IMG/VR virus record: IMGVR_UViG_3300020442_000005
Span: 186,001 to 250,000 of that record
Direction: 5' to 3' (one strand)
Length of the DNA stretch: 64,000 bases
DNA from: a virus
Position 1 is the stretch's first letter. Each line of letters starts with the position of its first letter. Made by a program: the position numbers and the translations under genes. Below the pieces are notes generated by a model. It ran no database searches. It was not told the DNA's origin and saw only the letters and a program-made list of their open reading frames with translations. Below, piece by piece: positions 7,981 through 62,327 of the stretch.

Positions 7981-8427
7981 ATGAACGAAAGAAAAGTTAT
8001 TGCAAGAATCCGAAACGCCTACAAAAAACGCCTGACCGAAGCCGTTATTGCTGGCGCGCTTGAAGAAGTTGACATGTTCGACAAACGTGGTAATATGATA
8101 TTGACACCGGATCTCAAGGTTAGACACAAGGCATCCGGATACGAATATACGATCGATCATATAGAAGGCGAAGGAGAGGACGCTGTGGTGTATCTCAGAC
8201 ATCCAGAGGAGCCAAGATTCTCAACTGCTGATGCGGAAACACCTTTAGTTGAAAAAACCAAGCTTCAAATGAAAGGTCTTAACGTTGCAAATATCTCTGG
8301 CGGAGGTATGTCTGACATGCCGGAAGAATTGTCTTTGGAAAAGCCTTCTGATGTAGAGAAAAAGGCACCGGCTTCGTTGTTGTCAATAACAAAGAAAGAG
8401 TTTGAAAACGAATACGAGGTAGAATAA
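7981..8427 (+). CDS. Virion-type hypothetical protein
   Basis: 148 aa, unrecognised. The N-terminus is basic and amphipathic and reaches LTEAV by residue 20, resembling the leaders of the other virion-type proteins here. The middle (residues 35-70) looks like a small beta domain with VRHKASGYEYTIDHIEGE. ATG 7981 is preferred over 7978 because it is better spaced from AGGGGA. The stop overlaps the next ATG by one base (TAATG). Confidence 0.65.
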   Translation: MNERKVIARIRNAYKKRLTEAVIAGALEEVDMFDKRGNMILTPDLKVRHKASGYEYTIDHIEGEGEDAVVYLRHPEEPRFSTADAETPLVEKTKLQMKGLNVANISGGGMSDMPEELSLEKPSDVEKKAPASLLSITKKEFENEYEVE

Positions 8428-9110
8428 TGGATAAAACTTTGAAAGAAATGATTGCAGAAGATTTAGGACTTAAAAAAGACAAGTCTTTGAACGAATCATA
8501 TGTAACTGCTGCCAAAAAATATGATGTTACTACTGAGCTGCTTTCAAAGAAAAATATTGAGGCGCATAATCAGTTATTGGCTCAATATGTCGACGATCTA
8601 AACACAGTGTCTGCCAAACTTGATACAGTATCACGTGAGGATGCTAACCTAAACCATTCAGAGTTTAGGGGTTTGAAGATCGATGAGACCTATAATTTGA
8701 ATGCTGCCTACTTGCATGCCATGTTTTTCGAAAACATAGGAGACCCAAATTCAACAATCACTATGGATTCAATGACTTTTTTACGGCTAGAAAGAGACTT
8801 TGGTTCTTTCGATGCTTGGCAAAAAGATTTTATCGCATGTGGTCTATCGGCAAGAAACGGCTGGGCTGTAACTGTATACAACGACTTTCTTGGTAGATAC
8901 ATGAACGTTGTGGTTGATCTACATAGTTTAAACGTGCCTTTCTCTTCTAAACCTGTTATCGTATTAGATTGCTGGGAACATAGCTACTATCGTGACTATC
9001 TAAAAGATAGAAAGACATACATATACGCGATGATGAAGGAACTCAATTGGAGCCAGATTGAAAAGCGTGTTAAGATAGCTGAGAAGATAGCAAAAATTAC
9101 CAAAAAATAA
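8427..9110 (+). CDS. Fe/Mn superoxide dismutase-like protein
   Basis: 227 aa. The fold is recognisable by IEAHNQLLAQYVDDLN, LNAAYLHAMFFENI, NGWAVTVYND and the C-terminal DCWEHSYYRDYLKDRK. All four metal ligands appear conserved: H47, H97, D181 and H185. It would convert superoxide to peroxide and oxygen if active. The N-terminal 24 residues are extra compared with cellular SODs and end in SLNES, a possible processing site. It lies inside the structural-type operon, so it may be a virion part rather than a free enzyme (inference). Confidence 0.85.
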   Translation: MDKTLKEMIAEDLGLKKDKSLNESYVTAAKKYDVTTELLSKKNIEAHNQLLAQYVDDLNTVSAKLDTVSREDANLNHSEFRGLKIDETYNLNAAYLHAMFFENIGDPNSTITMDSMTFLRLERDFGSFDAWQKDFIACGLSARNGWAVTVYNDFLGRYMNVVVDLHSLNVPFSSKPVIVLDCWEHSYYRDYLKDRKTYIYAMMKELNWSQIEKRVKIAEKIAKITKK

Positions 9111-14419: not shown

Positions 14420-14429
14420 TATAATTATA
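14420..14429 (+). promoter_or_regulatory. Palindromic TATAATTATA element (candidate late promoter)
   Basis: Exact copy of the 10-bp palindrome, followed by a second overlapping TATAAT (14426-14431), 50 bp upstream of the ParB-like leader-bearing gene. No -35 is recognisable. Confidence 0.55.
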
Positions 14430-15819: not shown

Positions 15820-15829
15820 TATAATTATA
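15820..15829 (+). promoter_or_regulatory. Palindromic TATAATTATA element (candidate late promoter)
   Basis: Exact copy between the terminator and the 401-aa virion-type gene, 25 bp before its ATG. It is the only copy with a plausible -35 (CTGTAT at 15797-15802, 17 bp upstream). Confidence 0.6.
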
Positions 15830-19119: not shown

Positions 19120-20709
19120 ATGCCTGAAGCAGCGAAGAAAAAGTTAATATTTCATGACGAAGCCCGATCTATACTTTTAGACGGAGTGAACAAGTTGGCT
19201 GATGCTGTCAGTGTTACAATGGGTCCGGGTGGTCTTAATGTAGTAATACAAAGAGAGAACTCGGTACCTATTCTAACAAAGGACGGTGTGACTGTTGCAC
19301 GTGCAATTAATTTACCAGATGAAATGGAAAATTTGGGAGTGCAGCTAGTGAAAGAGGCAGCTCAAGGGGCAGCTGATATAGCCGGAGATGGTACAACTAC
19401 ATCGACCGTGTTGGCTCGTGAAATTTTCTCGCTGGGCTTGAGAGCCATGGCCGCTGGAAACAGTTCCGTCGATATTAGGGAAGGCCTGCGCCAAGCCGGC
19501 GAGGAAGCTATCAAGCTGATAAACCAAAACTCGATACCAATTCAGACTGACGAACAAATAAAGCAGGTTGGTACCATATCAGCAAACGGTGAGGAAGAAA
19601 TCGGTCAGTATTTAGCAAACGCAATGTCCGCAGTCGGAAGAGAAGGCATCATTGCAGTTGAAGAAGCGAAGGGCTTTAAAACCAGTCTTGAAAAAGTGTC
19701 AGGTACCAGAATCGACCGAGGATTCGTAAGCCCATATTTTATTAACAATGCAGCGAAAAGTCATTGCGTTCTTAATAAACCAAAGGTACTACTTGCCAAC
19801 AGAAAAATTAGCTCGATGCGTGAACTGTTGCCGTTGTTAGAAGCTGCGCATGAACGTCAGAAACCAATATTGATTATTGCGGATGAAGTGGAAGGCGAGG
19901 CTTTAAACGGACTTGTAGTAAACGCCTCCAATGGAACTATCAAGGTTTGCGTAATCAGACCGCCAGAGTTCGGTCAAAATAGACTAGGTGCAATGGAGGA
20001 TTTGGCAGTCCTTTTGGGAACAAAAGTATATCGATCATCTGATGATCTTGCAACCGTAAATTTTGACACTCTCGGTACCGCAAAAAAGATTACTGTCAAA
20101 AAAACAGAGACAGTTATTCTTGAGCCAGGAGGAGACGAGGTTGAAATAGTCAAACAGAAGGATTCTATCCGTGAAGAACTTGCCACACCTGGACTGGAAA
20201 AATCTCTGAACGACGCCCTGCAACGAAGGTTGTCACGATTGGCAGACGGAATTGCAATTATAAGAGTTGGTGGCGCAACGGAAGCAGAGCTAAGAGAAAG
20301 AAAGGATCGAGTCGAAGACGCTTTACACGCAACGAGAGCCGCTGCAAATAAAGGGATTCTACCGGGTGGAGGAACGGCATTGCTGAGAGTTTCAGAAAAA
20401 ATAAAAGTTCCAGACGATGAACGTCTGCATGCAGGTTTTAGAATAATACAATTGGCCTGTAGAAAACCACTTACTCAAATCGTAAATAATGCTGGAATGG
20501 TACCCGAAGTAATTATTGAAAAGGTGTTGGCATCAGATAACTTTGATTATGGGTATAACGCTAGAACAAACACTTTTGGAGATTTGAAGGAAATGGGAGT
20601 CATTGATCCAACTTTAGTCCTGGTGTCAGCTTTAAGACACAGTGTTTCAGCGGCAGATAATTTGCTCAGCGTAGCCTGTGCAATGCATGATATAGATTCT
20701 AAATTCTAG
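19120..20709 (+). CDS. groEL: GroEL-type chaperonin (phage type)
   Basis: 529 aa, close to full HSP60 length. Visible are DAVSVTMGPGGLNVVI, the ATP loop AGDGTTTSTVLAR (residues 89-100), VEDALHATRAA and GILPGGGTALLR. The Gly-Gly-Met tail of bacterial GroEL is missing. It should fold phage proteins in an ATP-dependent ring. No groES is seen in the window, so it either uses host GroES or works without it, as reported for some large-phage GroELs. It is translated with the small upstream genes. Confidence 0.93.
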   Translation: MPEAAKKKLIFHDEARSILLDGVNKLADAVSVTMGPGGLNVVIQRENSVPILTKDGVTVARAINLPDEMENLGVQLVKEAAQGAADIAGDGTTTSTVLAREIFSLGLRAMAAGNSSVDIREGLRQAGEEAIKLINQNSIPIQTDEQIKQVGTISANGEEEIGQYLANAMSAVGREGIIAVEEAKGFKTSLEKVSGTRIDRGFVSPYFINNAAKSHCVLNKPKVLLANRKISSMRELLPLLEAAHERQKPILIIADEVEGEALNGLVVNASNGTIKVCVIRPPEFGQNRLGAMEDLAVLLGTKVYRSSDDLATVNFDTLGTAKKITVKKTETVILEPGGDEVEIVKQKDSIREELATPGLEKSLNDALQRRLSRLADGIAIIRVGGATEAELRERKDRVEDALHATRAAANKGILPGGGTALLRVSEKIKVPDDERLHAGFRIIQLACRKPLTQIVNNAGMVPEVIIEKVLASDNFDYGYNARTNTFGDLKEMGVIDPTLVLVSALRHSVSAADNLLSVACAMHDIDSKF

Positions 20710-20741: not shown

Positions 20742-20765
20742 ACCTGTGTACTTTTGTGCACAGGT
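20742..20765. promoter_or_regulatory. Inverted repeat overlapping the sigma-gene -35, possible operator
   Basis: ACCTGTGTAC and GTGCACAGGT form a 10-bp inverted repeat (one G-T pair) around TTTT. It covers the -35 at 20746. On the plus strand no T-run follows. On the minus strand a T-run does follow, but no minus-strand gene ends here. An operator or mRNA-end hairpin is more likely than a plus-strand terminator. Confidence 0.5.
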
Positions 20766-20774
20766 GATTAAATT
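20746..20774 (+). promoter_or_regulatory. TGTA-class promoter of the sigma factor gene
   Basis: GTGTAC at 20746-20751 and TAAATT at 20769-20774, spacer 17 bp, in the 117-bp gap after groEL. The downstream part reads TAAATTATAGATG, almost the same as the promoters near 28.5, 59.2 and 61.4 kb. Confidence 0.7.
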
Positions 20775-20826: not shown

Positions 20827-21528
20827 ATGAGACAAATATCGCACAAACTATTGACAGCTGACGAAGAGAAAGAGTTAGCAAAATTAATCGAAAAGGGAGA
20901 TCGTCGTGCGCGAGACAAAATGATCTGCTGCAATCTCAGATTAGCGCTTTCAATTGCTAACCAGTATAGAAAATCTGGTCTGCCAATGGAGGATATATCA
21001 CAAGAAGCAAATGTTGGTTTGATCAAGGCTGTCGACAGATTCGACTGGAGAAAGGGATTCAAGTTCAGCACATATGCAGTGTGGTGGATTAAACAATCGA
21101 TTAGAAGATATATCTCCTCTCAAGGAACTCACATTAAATTTCCAGCTGGATCTCGTCATACGATATATAAGATCGAAAAGCTGAGAAAAGAATACTTCGA
21201 CGATTTTGGCGTTTATCCAGACGACAAAGAAATTGCAGAAATCATGGGTATGTCGAAAGACGTCGTGTCATCGATTAGGGCTGGAATGCAATGGCCTGTA
21301 AACATCGACCAGCCCATGAAAGGATTTGAGGGTAGAACTTATGCTGAAGTGATCCCTGATGAAGATTCGACTATGCACGAAGAGATGATCGATCGCGATA
21401 CAATTATTAATCTAATCAAAACAGGGTTTAGCTCACTAACTAAACAAGAGGAAATGGTTCTAAGACTACGTTTCGGCATTAAGGAATCCGATACAGATAC
21501 TGAAAAATTTCCTTCAACCAATCAATAA
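20827..21528 (+). CDS. Sigma-70 family factor lacking region 4.2
   Basis: 233 aa. Region 2 is clear: NLRLALSIANQYRKSGLPMEDISQE, then GLIKAVDRFDW and FKFSTYAVWWIKQSI (core binding and -10 melting). Region 3 follows (KIEKLRKEYFDDFGVYP) and region 4.1 is present (TKQEEMVLRLRFGI). The protein then ends (TDTEKFPSTNQ) where the -35-binding helix-turn-helix of region 4.2 should be. GGGGG precedes the ATG. Sigma factors without region 4 direct T4 late transcription (gp55), so this may be the late sigma. Confidence 0.9.
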   Translation: MRQISHKLLTADEEKELAKLIEKGDRRARDKMICCNLRLALSIANQYRKSGLPMEDISQEANVGLIKAVDRFDWRKGFKFSTYAVWWIKQSIRRYISSQGTHIKFPAGSRHTIYKIEKLRKEYFDDFGVYPDDKEIAEIMGMSKDVVSSIRAGMQWPVNIDQPMKGFEGRTYAEVIPDEDSTMHEEMIDRDTIINLIKTGFSSLTKQEEMVLRLRFGIKESDTDTEKFPSTNQ

Positions 21529-21547
21529 TTAAACAGGAGAAATATAT

Positions 21548-21820
21548 ATGTCTATGCCAAAAGGATTTAAATCGGAAAATGGTTACGCCACCGTCACAGG
21601 AACAGATGGGTTGGGCTACAGAGAAATTGCAGAAAAAATGACAAGTGATGGTATAAAAATGAATCACGCAACAGCAAGAAATTATTTTATTCGCGCAATG
21701 AAAAAGATCGCGAAACCCCTAGCTGGCCACAGTGAAAGAAGCCCTGATAAGTTAGCAGCAGATCCAGGGTTTCAAGGAGCTGTAGCTACACTCATGAAGG
21801 AAAAGAAACTTGTATTATAA
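21548..21820 (+). CDS. Small helix-turn-helix protein, region 4.2-like
   Basis: 90 aa. GLGYREIAEKMTSDGIKMNH and ATARNYFIRAMKKIAK resemble the region 4.2 HTH that the preceding sigma factor lacks, with a longer turn. It has its own AGGAGA and ATG 20 bp after the sigma stop. It may act together with the sigma factor or as a separate regulator. Confidence 0.65.
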   Translation: MSMPKGFKSENGYATVTGTDGLGYREIAEKMTSDGIKMNHATARNYFIRAMKKIAKPLAGHSERSPDKLAADPGFQGAVATLMKEKKLVL

Positions 21821-22348: not shown

Positions 22349-22912
22349 ATGCTAAAGAAAATACTTAAATGGCCCAACAAAACATTGCAAACCCCATCGG
22401 TTGCTGTTACGGCGTTTGATGACGAACTTGAAAAAACCATTGTTGATCTTGTCGACACATGTCGGGTAAACTACGGTGCTGGGCTAGCTGCTCCTCAAAT
22501 AGGGGTAAACAAGAAAATTGTGATAATCAAGACGTCAGGGTTAACTGAAGAAAACTTAAGTCCGGCGTCGTACAATCCAGATTATATGGTTTTAATTAAT
22601 CCGATTCTGGAACTAGATGGCGATGAGATTGAGTGGAGAGAGGCATGCCTTAGCGTTCCCGATGTTAGTGGAAAAGTAAAGCGAAAAAAGAGATGCTCGG
22701 TTGTATTTATGGACGAGAAGGGTGACACAAAAAAGATAAATGCTGACTGGCCCTTTTCTGGAGTCTTGCAGCACGAAATAGATCATTTAGAAGGGATAGT
22801 TTATCTTAACAAAATGGACAAACGAAAGAGGACTGCTTTAGTGTGGGAGCTGAGTCGCAACAAACGAAAAAAATACATCGAAGCAAAAAGGAAGAGAAGA
22901 AATGCAAGATGA
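22349..22912 (+). CDS. def: Peptide deformylase
   Basis: 187 aa. All three motifs are present: GAGLAAPQIG (residues 43-52), EACLSVPD with zinc Cys at about 100 (the usual Gly is Ala), and QHEIDHLEG with the two zinc His and catalytic Glu (141-149). It removes the N-formyl group from new proteins. Phage deformylases are known and may speed maturation of phage or photosystem proteins. A basic C-terminal tail is added. It overlaps the next gene by 11 nt. Confidence 0.93.
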   Translation: MLKKILKWPNKTLQTPSVAVTAFDDELEKTIVDLVDTCRVNYGAGLAAPQIGVNKKIVIIKTSGLTEENLSPASYNPDYMVLINPILELDGDEIEWREACLSVPDVSGKVKRKKRCSVVFMDEKGDTKKINADWPFSGVLQHEIDHLEGIVYLNKMDKRKRTALVWELSRNKRKKYIEAKRKRRNAR

Positions 22913-28141: not shown

Positions 28142-28512
28142 TGCCGGCCAAAAAAGTTAAAAAACCGATAAAAAACAACAATCTAGATTTTATTGCAACC
28201 TATTTGTTTGAGTATCCCGGTTCGTCTGCAACCGATGTTCGCCGAGCGCTTTGGATATATCGTAATAGAAAATGGTCAGACATCGATCAGAAAGGTTTTT
28301 CGGAAAGAACAACATACGTATCGTATTTCCACATTTCGAAAGGACAATCCCACCGCGGTTATGCTGGAAAATTTTGGGTGAAGCGGAATAGAAACAGTTG
28401 GATACTCACTGCTGATGGATTGTATCGCGTAAGGCAGAAATTAATTAAACGTGTACATTCAATTAATAGAAAAATTGTTAAGCAAAAAATGTGTAGGCGT
28501 GGCGCAAACTAG
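28141..28512 (+). CDS. Basic hypothetical protein, possible winged helix
   Basis: 123 aa. NLDFIATYLFEYPGSSATDV then RRALWIYRNRK, and a Tyr/Trp-rich strand region ending in ILTADGLYRVRQKLIK, resemble a winged-helix DNA-binding protein. The C-terminus is basic. It shares one base with the uvsE stop (TAATG). Confidence 0.5.
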   Translation: MPAKKVKKPIKNNNLDFIATYLFEYPGSSATDVRRALWIYRNRKWSDIDQKGFSERTTYVSYFHISKGQSHRGYAGKFWVKRNRNSWILTADGLYRVRQKLIKRVHSINRKIVKQKMCRRGAN

Positions 28513-28519
28513 ATAAATT
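28491..28519 (+). promoter_or_regulatory. TGTA-class promoter with 5' stem-loop leader
   Basis: GTGTAG at 28491-28496 and TAAATT at 28514-28519, spacer 17 bp. The -10 is the start of TAAATTATATATG, and a stem-loop follows directly (28526-28542). Confidence 0.75.
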
Positions 28520-33501: not shown

Positions 33502-33945
33502 ATGAGTTCTGAATCAACACCAAAACCAAAAAGAAAAAGAAACTGGGCAAAGAACAGAGATATTCTGAAAGCTATACCAAACCCTTCCGGGGATGCGTAT
33601 GAGATTAAAATGAAAATACCTGAGCTTACATTTGAAGGTGTTCGATCTCAGCCGGATTTTGCTAATCTGTATATCACTTTTTACCCGGGCAAAAAAGTTA
33701 TTGAGCTTAAGTCATTGAAAGAATATTTCTTTGCTTTTAGATCACAAATATATTCATATGAAAGAATCATCAATGTTATCTACGATGATATGATGGCTGT
33801 GTATGAACCAACAAGATTGCGACTGGTCATGACTTGTAATCCTCGTGGTGGGATCTCGTCTAAATTAACTGTAGATTCAGACTGGGGAGTTCGTGGTGGC
33901 AATGACCAGTTTATGGATTGGGTAGGGCAAAAAGAAGAATGGTAA
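33502..33945 (+). CDS. QueF-like tunnelling-fold protein without the catalytic Cys
   Basis: 147 aa from ATG 33502. [38 protein letters not shown] and CNPRGGISS are hallmarks of QueF (preQ0 reductase). The nucleophile Cys of CPVTGQPD is replaced: here the segment reads EGVRSQPD, with Glu at about residue 45. Nitrile reduction as known is thus unlikely. It might bind a 7-deazaguanine or have another activity. No other queuosine gene is in the window. It overlaps metH by 7 nt. Confidence 0.75.
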
Positions 33946-36900
33946 GTTTTGATAAAAATCAGATCTATATTATTGATGGTGCAATGGGCACCGAAATACA
34001 GAAAAGACAGGTTGAATCCAAATTCTTTAAATACGAAGGAATCGACTGCGATGGCTTTAATGATATTTTGGTGCTCACCAAACCCGGCCTGATAAAAGAT
34101 ATACACGGTGATTACATCAACTCCGGCGCAAATATCATTGAGACAAATACCTTTAACGCTAATTATATTTCAGCGTTAGATTACGGACTTAGTGATGGAG
34201 CGATCGATAAAATAAACTTTAGCGCTGCCAAAATTGCAAAACAGGCTGCAAAAAAATCTAAAGAAGAGGTGTATGTAGCCGGTGTTTTAGGCCCGACTTC
34301 AAAAACTTTAAGCATGTCACCAAACGTTACAGATCCTTCTTATAGAGATATCACGTACCATGAATTACTCAATGCTTATAAAGCCGCAACTGAAAATCTA
34401 ATTCGTGGTGGCGCAGATTTGATTTTAATCGAAACAGTCTTTGACACACTTAATGCCAAGGCTGCGATTGAGGCTGTGAGACTGGTAGGAGAAGATATTC
34501 CTATCATGATATCAGGTACAATCGTTGACATGTCTGGTCGGACTTTATCTGGCCAGACTGTCGAGGCTTTTTGGAATTCCATTAAACACGCAAGGCCTAT
34601 TAGTGTTGGTTTGAATTGTGCGCTAGGTGCAAAGCAAATGGATCCATTTCTGCGGCGTCTAGCAGACGTCAGTGGTTGCGCAATCAGCGCACATCCGAAC
34701 GCGGGGTTACCAAACGAATTAGGTGAATACGACCAATCCCCGTCTGATATGGCAAACTATATTAAGAACTGGGCAAAAGCCGGGATTGTAAATATAATAG
34801 GTGGATGTTGTGGGTCGACTCCGGATCACATCAAAAAGATAGCCAACACCGTAAAAAAGTTTAAACCCAAAAGGCACATAACCAGAAGTTTTAATTTGGA
34901 CCGGTCAATGATTCTTTCTGGTTTAGAGGTCTTTGATAGCAAAGGAAAGAACTTTATTAATATTGGCGAGCGAACAAACGTCACTGGGTCTTCAAGGTTT
35001 AAAAAATGTATCGTAGAAAAAAGATATGATGATGCGTTGAATATTGCTCGTTCGCAGATTCTAAATGGCGCCCAGATTATCGATATCAATATGGACGATG
35101 GACTCTTAGATTCTAAGAGTGAAATGATTAATTTTTTAAAAATGTTGGCATGCGAGCCTGATATTGCAAAAGTACCAATCATGCTTGATTCTTCGAAGTG
35201 GGATATCCTATCGGAAGCCATGAGATGGATACAAGGGAAAGGTATTGTAAATTCAATTTCTCTTAAAGATGGAGAATCAGACTTTCTTGCCCGGGCAAAA
35301 GAAATTGTTTCGTGCGGACACGCTTTTGTGGTAATGGCTTTTGATGAAAAAGGGCAGGCTGATACTTTTGATAGAAAAATAGAGATATGTGAACGCGCTT
35401 ATTGGATTTTAGTTAACGCAGGAATAAAGCCACAAGACATTATTTTTGATCCAAATATCTTTGCAATCGCCACCGGGATAGAAGAACACGACAACTATGC
35501 AGTCGACTTTATAACTGCTACTGCATGGATTAAAAAGAACCTGCCTGGATGCTACGTCTCCGGAGGATTATCAAACCTATCATTCTCTTTCAGGGGAAAT
35601 CCTCGCGTGAGAGAGATGATGCATTCCGTCTTTTTGTTTCATGCTATCAAAGCCGGGTTGGACATGGCGATTGTAAACGCAGGTCAACTAATGGTGTACG
35701 ACCAGATCGATCAAGGCCATCGGGACATTGTTGAATCTGTTATTTTAAATAAGCATGAAGAAGCATCGGCACAGCTTTTAGAATTAGCAAAATCTCTATC
35801 TGGTAAAACCCGAGTAGAATCTAACGGGTTCCAAGAATGGCGTAACGAAGAGGTTGAAGAAAGAATATCTTTTGCCCTTATAAACGGTATCGATAAATTT
35901 ATCGTCGAAGATGTCAAGGAATGTTACAACAAAATAGGCTCGGCATTAAACGTTGTTGAAGGACCGTTGATGGATGGTATGAACGTAGTTGGAGACCTTT
36001 TTGGCTCCGGTAAAATGTTTTTACCTCAAGTAGTCAAGTCAGCGCGTGTAATGAAAAAAGCAGTCTCGTGGCTCGAGCCTTTTATGGTTGGCACAGATGA
36101 AGCAATACAGAGGGAAAAAATACTGCTTGCCACAGTTAAAGGCGACGTTCATGACATTGGAAAAAACATTGTTAGTATAGTTCTTCAATGTAATGGATAC
36201 GAGATAGTTGATCTAGGAGTCATGGTTCCATTAGAAAAGATACTAGAGGAAGCTGATAAACACCAGGTTGCAGCAATCGGTCTTAGCGGATTGATTACAC
36301 CAAGTTTAGATGAGATGGTTAAAGTTGCTCGAGCAATGAATGAAAGACAAATGGATATACCTTTACTAATTGGTGGAGCAACAACATCAAAAGTTCACAC
36401 GGCAATCAAAATATCTCCGGAGTACTCAAAAACAGTATATATACAAAATGCATCGATTGCAGTCGGAATTGTTAATGACGTGTTAAGTAAGAGTGATGCA
36501 TTCGATAAGATTAATAGGGATTATGAAGAAACTAGGGAGAGAAGAAACTCGAGAAAGCAAACGTTTGTAAGTGTTTCTGATGCAAGAAGAAATGCATATC
36601 AGCTAAAAGGAAAGCCACAGATTCCAGATAACTTTGGAATGACTATCAAAAGCAAAGCTTCAGTTTCAGAGATCATACCATATATTGATTGGGCACCGTT
36701 TGCAATGACTTGGGGAATGAAACCAAAAGATCTTACAAGCCAAGTCGGTAAAGATCTAATGAAGGATGCCCGAGAAATGCTTCGAAAACTTGATGATAAG
36801 ATTGTAGTTAACTATTCATTTGCTATCGATAAATGTACAAAAACAAATAATGACGATGTACTGGTGAAAAGACCGGATAAATCAACGACTTTTAATTTCA

Positions 36901-37454
36901 TGAGGCAAGCAACAAAAAAATCTCGGCCGAATCTTTGTTTGACAGATTTCTTACATCAGGAAGATTGGATAGGGTCTTTTGCGGTCTGGGTGTGCGGAAT
37001 CGATAAGAGAGCAGACATGCTCAGATTAGCCAACGATGATTACGGATCGATCATGATGCAAGCGCTTGGGGATAGACTCGCCGAAGCAACGGCTGAATGG
37101 CTACACGAGAGGGTTCGTAAGTCATGGTGGGGTTACTCAAAAGACGAAAACTTGACAAATACCGACCTTATAAAAGAGCGTTACTTAGGAATCAGGCCAG
37201 CACCCGGATATCCAGCCTGTCCGGATCATACCCAGAAGATAAAAATATTAAACTGGTTAGAAATTAGTGATACAATAGAGCTGACCGAGGGTTTAACAAT
37301 GTCGCCAAAGTCCGCAATATGTGGTTGGTACTTTGCAAGTGCAGAATCAAAATACTTCGGTGTTGGAAAAATACCAGACGAATACGTAGAAGATTTAAAA
37401 GAAAGAAATCCATATCTAAAAAAATACAAAAATCATATAACGGGAGTTAGTTAA
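33939..37454 (+). CDS. metH: Cobalamin-dependent methionine synthase, full length
   Basis: 1171 aa from ATG 33939. Order of domains: homocysteine-binding barrel (1-320) with zinc Cys in GLNCALG (C227) and GGCCGST (C290, C291); pterin/methyl-folate barrel from about 340 ([13 protein letters not shown]); B12 cap and Rossmann domain (about 640-880) with cobalt-ligand His in [10 protein letters not shown] (H738) and [10 protein letters not shown]-terminal reactivation domain with [12 protein letters not shown]. All modules are kept. It needs B12 and methyl-folate from the host. One base separates it from ahcY. Confidence 0.95.
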
Positions 37455-59179: not shown

Positions 59180-59208
59180 GTGTGCTCGTCGCCCTAGTGG
59201 GGTAAATT
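59180..59208 (+). promoter_or_regulatory. TGTA-class promoter
   Basis: GTGTGC at 59180-59185 and TAAATT at 59203-59208, spacer 17 bp. The -10 is part of TAAATTATATATG, identical to the sites at 28514 and 61426. Confidence 0.72.
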
Positions 59209-61402: not shown

Positions 61403-61431
61403 GTGTAATCATATGACCAGTGTGGTAAATT
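61403..61431 (+). promoter_or_regulatory. TGTA-class promoter with 5' stem-loop leader
   Basis: GTGTAA at 61403-61408 and TAAATT at 61426-61431, spacer 17 bp, followed by a GTAAG/CTTAC stem-loop (61438-61454) with a poly-A loop. Confidence 0.75.
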
Positions 61432-61484: not shown

Positions 61485-62327
61485 ATGAATACAATTAAAA
61501 TGCTCAATCCCGAGACAAATGAAGTCTCAAACGTCCCAGCTGTACAAGTAACAGATTATCTCGTTTCCGGCTGGATCATCACTGAAGGCGCGCTTACTGA
61601 ATGGTGGGAAACCCAAGGCAAAGAAATCTATGATGACGAGCCTACGGAAACTTACTACGAAGAGGACGTCGACGCCAACGAAGCAATCGATCGCGATTTT
61701 GCGGCTGCTGTCTTTGAAGACGAGACGGACCAAGCTCCGGAGCATACCAAAGAAAATGTTATCCAGGCTCTTCTCGACAACAACATTCTCAATGCGGCTG
61801 TTGCTCACCTTGGCGACTTGCAAACTGCTGACGAGCTAGCTGCTGGCGTGACTAGTCACAATAACGGCGCCGGCTTCTCAGCCGCATATGCGCGCACCGG
61901 TCGTCGATTGTGGCAATGGGTTACTGGTAAAGACGCTAAGTCGATGGAAGAACGTTGGGACAAGAAGTGTCTCAGCCATACTCGAGCCAACGCAGCTTTT
62001 CAGCGCCAAGTTCGCAACTATGATTTTGATACGGCTGTAGAGCTGGCAAGATATGTTTGTTCGTTTCACTGGCGTCAACTGTCTCATATTCTTGAGCCTG
62101 ATTTCGCAGGAATGGATCTACCAAAAGTGGATGAGAAAAAGCGAAACAACTTCGTGCCATCAAAGTGGCTTGATATTACCGGTGCAAAAGTGCTAACAAT
62201 CAAAGGCAACGGTACACAAATCTTGTGGGACAGCCGAAAGATCTGGCTTCCTTCTAGCCAGTTTAAGAATGCAAACGGTAAGATGAGTATTCCTATGTGG
62301 TTGGCTCAGAAGAATGACATGATTTAA
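61485..62327 (+). CDS. Hypothetical protein
   Basis: 280 aa. Residues 45-85 are very acidic (EDVDANEAIDRDFAAAVFED). The C-terminal two thirds contain AYARTGRRLWQWVTGKD and FNVPSK-like basic patches, with ILWDSRKIWLPSSQFKN near the end. It may be a nucleic-acid-binding protein. Own promoter and terminator, C-rich codons. Unrecognised. Confidence 0.58.
   Translation: MNTIKMLNPETNEVSNVPAVQVTDYLVSGWIITEGALTEWWETQGKEIYDDEPTETYYEEDVDANEAIDRDFAAAVFEDETDQAPEHTKENVIQALLDNNILNAAVAHLGDLQTADELAAGVTSHNNGAGFSAAYARTGRRLWQWVTGKDAKSMEERWDKKCLSHTRANAAFQRQVRNYDFDTAVELARYVCSFHWRQLSHILEPDFAGMDLPKVDEKKRNNFVPSKWLDITGAKVLTIKGNGTQILWDSRKIWLPSSQFKNANGKMSIPMWLAQKNDMI

What the first reader, a model, noticed from the sequence alone, without database searches (positions are those of the whole stretch)
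20827..21820. Sigma factor without region 4.2, followed by a separate region 4.2-like HTH protein
The sigma protein has regions 2, 3 and 4.1 and then stops where the -35-reading HTH should begin. The next gene, with its own ribosome site, encodes a small HTH of region 4.2 type. This could be a split sigma factor whose halves recombine on the polymerase, allowing a switch between -35-containing and -35-less promoters. That would fit the two promoter classes seen here.
Basis: partly seen in the sequence, partly recalled or inferred. Interest (0 to 1): 0.83.

Follow-up and report, generated by a model that had tools for sequence, protein, structure and literature searches.

The report
Phage sigma factor split in two
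Many large aquatic phages make the promoter-reading sigma factor as two neighbouring proteins, one lacking its usual -35-reading end and a small helix-turn-helix protein that probably supplies it, and these phages share a promoter type that fits such a two-part reader.

Summary
The sigma (20827-21528) ends just after region 4.1, and a 90-aa HTH protein (21548-21820) follows with its own ribosome site. In 81 of 83 HTH loci a sigma truncated at the same point lies within about 40 nt upstream. Reciprocally, the 80 sigmas most like this one all lack 4.2 and all have the HTH. The two genes occur in all three relative frames and are under purifying selection, so this is not an assembly error or a conserved frameshift. 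One distant phage carries both as a single 357-aa protein with the HTH where 4.2 belongs. No sequence homology between the HTH and region 4.2 was detectable, so it may be a replacement.

Split-sigma phages share a promoter class, GTG(C/T)AA-17/18-TATAAT, absent from 66 outgroup loci. In the window's clade the -10 is TAAATT, and the sigma gene itself carries such a promoter. Best reading: a two-part sigma whose HTH reads the -35-like element.

The proposed switch to -35-less promoters is not supported: the phage encodes a second, T4 gp55-like late sigma that fits the CATAATTAT class better. Two-part sigmas are known (SigO/RsoA; T4 gp55/gp33); a cut inside domain 4 is a new variant. No biochemistry was possible.

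The parts
20827..21528 (+). sigma-70 family protein, 233 aa, regions 1.2 (partial), 2, 3 and 4.1, then a short tail; no 4.2
21412..21480 (+). region 4.1 (SSLTKQEEMVLRLRFGI), the last conserved part of the sigma; invariant L204 E208 E209 R213 L214 R215 F216 G217 (expected to bind the beta flap tip, by homology)
21481..21525 (+). short acidic tail after 4.1; relatives keep 6-36 aa after RFG with a near-invariant F (often FP[IV]T..E), either a vestige of 4.2 or a docking segment (inference)
21535..21539 (+). Shine-Dalgarno AGGAG of the HTH gene, 8 nt before its ATG
   Evidence: direct reading
21548..21820 (+). 90-aa HTH protein, proposed detached -35-reading part of the sigma; conserved N-terminus MSMPKGFKxxxGYATV, HTH YREIAExMTxxGxKMNHxTARN, C-terminal DPxFQ
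21617..21724 (+). HTH helices (aa 24-33 and 40-59 in the model)
20746..20751 (+). -35-like GTGTAC of the bipartite promoter before the sigma gene
20769..20774 (+). -10 TAAATT of the same promoter, 17 nt downstream
28491..28519 (+). another bipartite promoter (GTGTAG-N17-TAAATT), before the ORF at about 28563
59180..59208 (+). another bipartite promoter (GTGTGC-N17-TAAATT)
61403..61431 (+). another bipartite promoter (GTGTAA-N17-TAAATT), before the ORF at 61485
14421..14428 (+). example of the other class: ATAATTAT, -35-less, assigned to the gp55-like sigma (inference)
15821..15828 (+). second example of the ATAATTAT class
19120..20709 (+). GroEL, directly upstream of the sigma; homologues of GroEL, sigma, HTH and the peptide deformylase occur close together in the same order in four relatives

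Best explanation
The two genes encode the two parts of one sigma factor for the host RNA polymerase; no beta'-type polymerase subunit gene was found in the 273-kb record. The large part holds the polymerase by regions 2, 3 and 4.1 and reads the -10 element. The 90-aa HTH protein docks next to 4.1 and takes the place of region 4.2, reading a phage-specific -35-like element, GTG(C/T)AA. Together they read the bipartite class GTG(C/T)AA-17/18-TATAAT (TAAATT in the window's clade), which lies mostly outside the structural genes and includes the promoter of the sigma gene itself, so the pair probably activates its own synthesis. Late promoters without a -35 are left to a separate gp55-like sigma. 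Shown: the conserved split at one point, the pairing, the natural fusion, the promoter class and its absence in outgroups. Inferred: physical assembly, which protein reads which element, autoregulation and timing.
For: (1) 81/83 HTH loci have a sigma truncated after 4.1 within -23 to +38 nt; reciprocal 80/80. (2) Relative frames vary (36/17/12) and dN/dS is below about 0.08 for both genes. (3) L184 carries sigma-4.1-HTH in one 357-aa ORF with no in-frame start codon before the HTH except two at its very edge. (4) The outgroup phage sigmas (L002-L080) carry region 4 to the C-terminus in frame, and the tree separates them from the split/fused set (99/87, all bootstraps). (5) In a single-chain AlphaFold model Foldseek aligns about 300 columns of 330 residues to SigA; the HTH alone matches no solved structure. 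(6) GTGYAA to TATAAT spacing is 40 cases at 17 nt and 11 at 18, with at most 1 at any other; the reverse strand has 1 at 17. 32/750 upstream regions against 0/437 in outgroups, p=5.6e-7, and 0/92 in a relative without the pair. (7) A promoter of this kind lies within 300 nt of 34/87 sigma genes against 3.7% of random windows. (8) The window's phage and its closest relative (sigma 58-59% identical) both use TAAATT as -10 where other clades use TATAAT, and they share a divergent region 2.4, WWIKQSIRRY.
Against: The HTH has no detectable sequence homology to 4.2 (hhalign P=0.097; HMM scores near shuffles). The distant subfamily B and the fusion phage share the MNHATARN helix but lack the GTGYAA class, so the helix alone does not set the -35, or other determinants matter. 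Host sigma-70 could read the class, many sites having an extended -10 (TGGTATAAT); the hosts are unknown and differ between family and outgroup. G001 showed no site by the pattern (3 by the looser one). No interaction was measured, and the model gives no interface score.
Confidence: 0.68

Rival explanations
1. gp55/gp33-like reading: the HTH protein is a co-activator that binds the beta flap or sigma 4.1 and upstream DNA without reading a sequence; the truncated sigma alone sets promoter choice.
For: T4 gp33 binds the flap as sigma-4 does and is called part of a split sigma (PMC2988020, PMC7892883). HTH not homologous to 4.2.
Against: T4 gp33 does not recognise DNA sequence and T4 late promoters have no -35, whereas these phages have a sharp -35-like element at fixed 17/18-nt spacing. 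No beta or gp45-type clamp found by Pfam in this record.
Confidence: 0.15
2. The HTH is an independent regulator (for example a repressor or an activator of the same operon) that only shares an operon with a sigma that works without 4.2.
For: A few relatives have 0.45-1 kb between the genes (L182, L195, L199, L221). HTH proteins are common regulators.
Against: Reciprocal one-to-one pairing over about 80 loci, the cut always after 4.1, and the natural fusion.
Confidence: 0.1
3. One reading: one sigma works with the HTH on -35 promoters and without it on -35-less late promoters.
For: Both promoter classes exist.
Against: A separate gp55-like late sigma exists in the genome and in 7/7 relatives and in a relative without the split pair.
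Confidence: 0.06
4. Assembly error or programmed frameshift making one full sigma.
For: Five relatives have the two genes in one frame separated by a single TAA.
Against: All three relative frames occur, many pairs overlap or have their own ribosome site, and about 65 distinct pairs show the same split.
Confidence: 0.01

Closest known systems
Bacillus subtilis SigO-RsoA two-subunit sigma
   Same: Sigma-2 and sigma-4 functions on two proteins from one operon; together they start transcription, including that of their own operon (PMC8103513).
   Different: [quoted passage not shown] here a nearly whole sigma (1.2-4.1) is kept and only the 4.2 half of domain 4 is detached, and it is phage-borne.
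T4 gp55 + gp33 (with clamp gp45)
   Same: Phage 'split sigma': one protein for -10, another at the beta flap (PMC2988020).
   Different: gp33 is unrelated to sigma and does not read sequence; late promoters lack a -35; a clamp is needed. This phage has a gp55-like protein in addition to the split pair.
SPO1 gp33/gp34 late regulators (from own knowledge)
   Same: Two phage proteins acting together on host polymerase.
   Different: Not compared here; recalled as a lead only.
Sigma-70 group proteins SigA/RpoD
   Same: Regions 1.2 to 4.1 align (E about 1e-73).
   Different: No region 4.2 in the same chain.
RpoD-like and minimal sigmas of jumbo phages (review PMC7824862)
   Same: Large phages recruit host polymerase with their own sigmas.
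   Different: The passages found describe no split RpoD-like sigma.

Membership tests
Sigma-70 family | region 2 (-10 reading, core binding) | tested here: met
   Sigma70_r2 3.3e-20; F80 S81 T82 Y83 W86 W87 Q90 invariant
Sigma-70 family | region 4.2 in the same protein | tested here: not met
   absent in the window and in all 80 nearest relatives
Sigma-70 region 4 (for the HTH protein) | sequence similarity to Sigma70_r4 | tested here: not met
   Pfam E=0.22; hhalign P=0.097; scores like shuffles
Sigma-70 region 4 (for the HTH protein) | position after 4.1 in one polypeptide | tested here: met
   natural fusion L184, one case on a long branch
T4 gp55/gp33 system | sliding clamp partner | tested here: inconclusive
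   no PF00712 or PF02916 hit in the record; a divergent clamp or missing sequence is possible
T4 gp55/gp33 system | no -35 element | tested here: not met
   fixed-spacing -35-like element
T4 gp55/gp33 system | physical binding to beta flap | not testable with these tools
   no biochemistry; no complex prediction
SigO-RsoA | sigma-2 and sigma-4 on two proteins that work together | tested here: inconclusive
   two parts and pairing shown; joint function not testable; the cut is at a different place
SPO1 gp33/gp34 | sequence relationship | not tested
   recalled from own knowledge only

The most novel reading that the evidence does not exclude
A sigma factor cut inside domain 4, whose -35-reading half is a separate, non-homologous HTH protein that has replaced region 4.2 and gives host polymerase a new -35 specificity (GTGYAA), with the split kept over a whole group of large phages.
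Probability: 0.45. Interest if true: 0.85.

Novelty: new variant of a known kind. Interest (0 to 1): 0.74.

Why it matters
If right, the -35 reader of a sigma factor can work as a detachable part supplied in trans. Domain 4 would then be two pieces that reassemble on the polymerase, and -35 specificity could be set by a 90-aa protein. It gives a natural, conserved system with matching promoters for asking how much of -35 recognition must be covalently joined to sigma, and a family-specific promoter signature for reading the transcription programme of uncultured large phages.

Tried and rejected
Sequence homology of the HTH to 4.2: tested three ways, not found (profile alignment of the tandem put the sigma tail, not the HTH, on 4.2). 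HTH relatives among isolated phages: none. Fold of the HTH alone: no significant match. Phage RNA polymerase beta' in the record: none. Second HTH copy in the genome: none. TTGAC-type -35 promoters in the family: about none. The GTGYAA class in subfamily B and in the fusion phage: absent.

Full report
What is there. In the window, a 233-aa sigma-70 family protein (20827-21528) is followed after 19 nt by a 90-aa HTH protein (21548-21820) with AGGAG 8 nt before its start. The sigma has regions 1.2 (partial), 2 and 3 by Pfam; its family profile aligns to SigA/RpoD through region 4.1 and the printed alignments stop after LRLRFGI. It ends about 16 aa later, where 4.2 would begin. The window is 186001-250000 of a 273-kb virus record with tail sheath genes, ribonucleotide reductase and DNA polymerase III alpha, so a large myovirus-like phage.

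Is it conserved? A scan of viral contigs with the HTH found 34 relatives, all with a sigma directly upstream. Extended scans gave 83 loci; in 81 the truncated sigma ends between 23 nt inside and 38 nt before the HTH start, in one (L182) 488 nt before it, and in one (L184) the two are fused. A further scan added a distant subfamily B and a few loci with 0.45-1 kb between the genes. Reciprocally, the 80 sigmas most like the window's all lack 4.2 and all have the HTH. Relative frames are 36/17/12 among 65 distinct pairs, and dN/dS is about 0.04-0.05 for sigma where it could be computed and below 0.08 throughout. This rules out assembly error and a conserved frameshift. The outgroup phage sigmas (L002-L080) carry region 4 in frame, nearly all with a recognisable 4.2; the tree puts them on one side of a branch (99/87, all bootstrap trees) and the split and fused ones on the other.

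Does the HTH belong to the sigma? L184, in a contig binned as Flavobacteriales, encodes sigma regions 2-4.1 and the HTH in one 357-aa frame. There is no in-frame start in the linker except an ATG and a TTG at the edge of the HTH. It is a single case on a long branch. The HTH alone has no significant match in solved or viral structures. Sequence homology to 4.2 is not detectable. So the HTH sits in the place of 4.2 but may be a replacement rather than a descendant.

What does it read? EM motif search in the 273-kb genome found two classes: ATAATTAT/CATACTTAT without a -35 (LL 66.5 against 28-34 for shuffles) and a bipartite one (LL 189.5 against 98-105). Refined, the second is GTGTAA-N17-TAAATTATATATG, with 9 sites including one before the sigma gene (20746-20774). 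Across 85 family loci and four genomes, GTG(C/T)AA lies 17 nt (40 cases) or 18 nt (11) before TATAAT and at most once at any other spacing; the reverse strand has 1. It is in 32/750 family upstream regions, 0/437 of outgroup phages, 0/92 of Flavobacterium phage immuto (p=5.6e-7 family against outgroup). TTGAC-N16-19-TA(T/A)AAT occurs once. A looser form of the promoter is within 300 nt of 34/87 sigma genes against 3.7% of random windows. In G002 and G003 the sites lie outside the core block of structural genes; in the window's genome most do. The closest relative of the window (G009) shows TGTGTA(A/G)-N17-TAAATT, also before its own sigma gene, so the -10 TAAATT goes with a shared, divergent region 2.4. 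That favours a phage sigma over the host sigma, but hosts are unknown.

The -35-less class. A second sigma-like gene at G000:72783-73523 matches PHROG 234, 'late sigma transcription factor' (E=0.0025; best relative 2.5e-6). It is present in 7/7 relatives at 41-59% identity and in phage immuto, which has no split sigma or HTH. T4 late promoters, read by gp55, also lack a -35. The ATAATTAT class is therefore assigned to this gene, by inference.

Caveats. Subfamily B genome G006 and the fusion phage contig lack the GTGYAA class although their HTH has the same MNHATARN segment; the fusion contig has a different bipartite motif, with TTGATA. G001 has few sites (3, none with the pattern). The gene calls and motif searches are home-made scripts; controls are reverse strands, shuffles and outgroups.

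Place among known systems. Two-part sigmas are known: SigO-RsoA in B. subtilis and, loosely, T4 gp55/gp33. In the papers held, searches for split or two-subunit sigmas found no phage RpoD-like sigma cut after 4.1; that library is partial. I rate it a new variant of a known kind.

Noticed in passing
G000:72783-73523 (outside the window): gp55-like late sigma next to baseplate genes, conserved in relatives and in Flavobacterium phage immuto (gp118).
   Followed up: yes
window 33939-37454: Full-length cobalamin-dependent methionine synthase (MetH, 1171 aa, five Pfam domains) encoded by a phage.
   Followed up: no
window 8427-9110: Fe/Mn superoxide dismutase.
   Followed up: no
window 22349-22912: Peptide deformylase close to the sigma/HTH pair and GroEL, in the same order in relatives.
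   Followed up: partly
window 20743-20764: Hairpin CCTGTGTAC-TTTT-GTGCACAGG overlapping the -35-like element of the sigma promoter; terminator or operator.
   Followed up: no
L386-L393 (contig of the fusion phage): Different strong bipartite motif A[AT]TCA[CG]TTGATATTC with a TGnTAT-like -10.
   Followed up: partly
L394-L406 (subfamily B genome G006): Strong upstream motif with CAAACAAAA, unexplained.
   Followed up: no
L487-L491 (Flavobacterium phage immuto): Very strong upstream motif TTG...TTC.TATATTTA (LL 417 against 92 for shuffles) in a phage with only a gp55-like sigma.
   Followed up: no
outgroup loci L002-L080: TATAAATA is about four times as frequent on the reverse strand of upstream regions as on the forward strand.
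   Followed up: no
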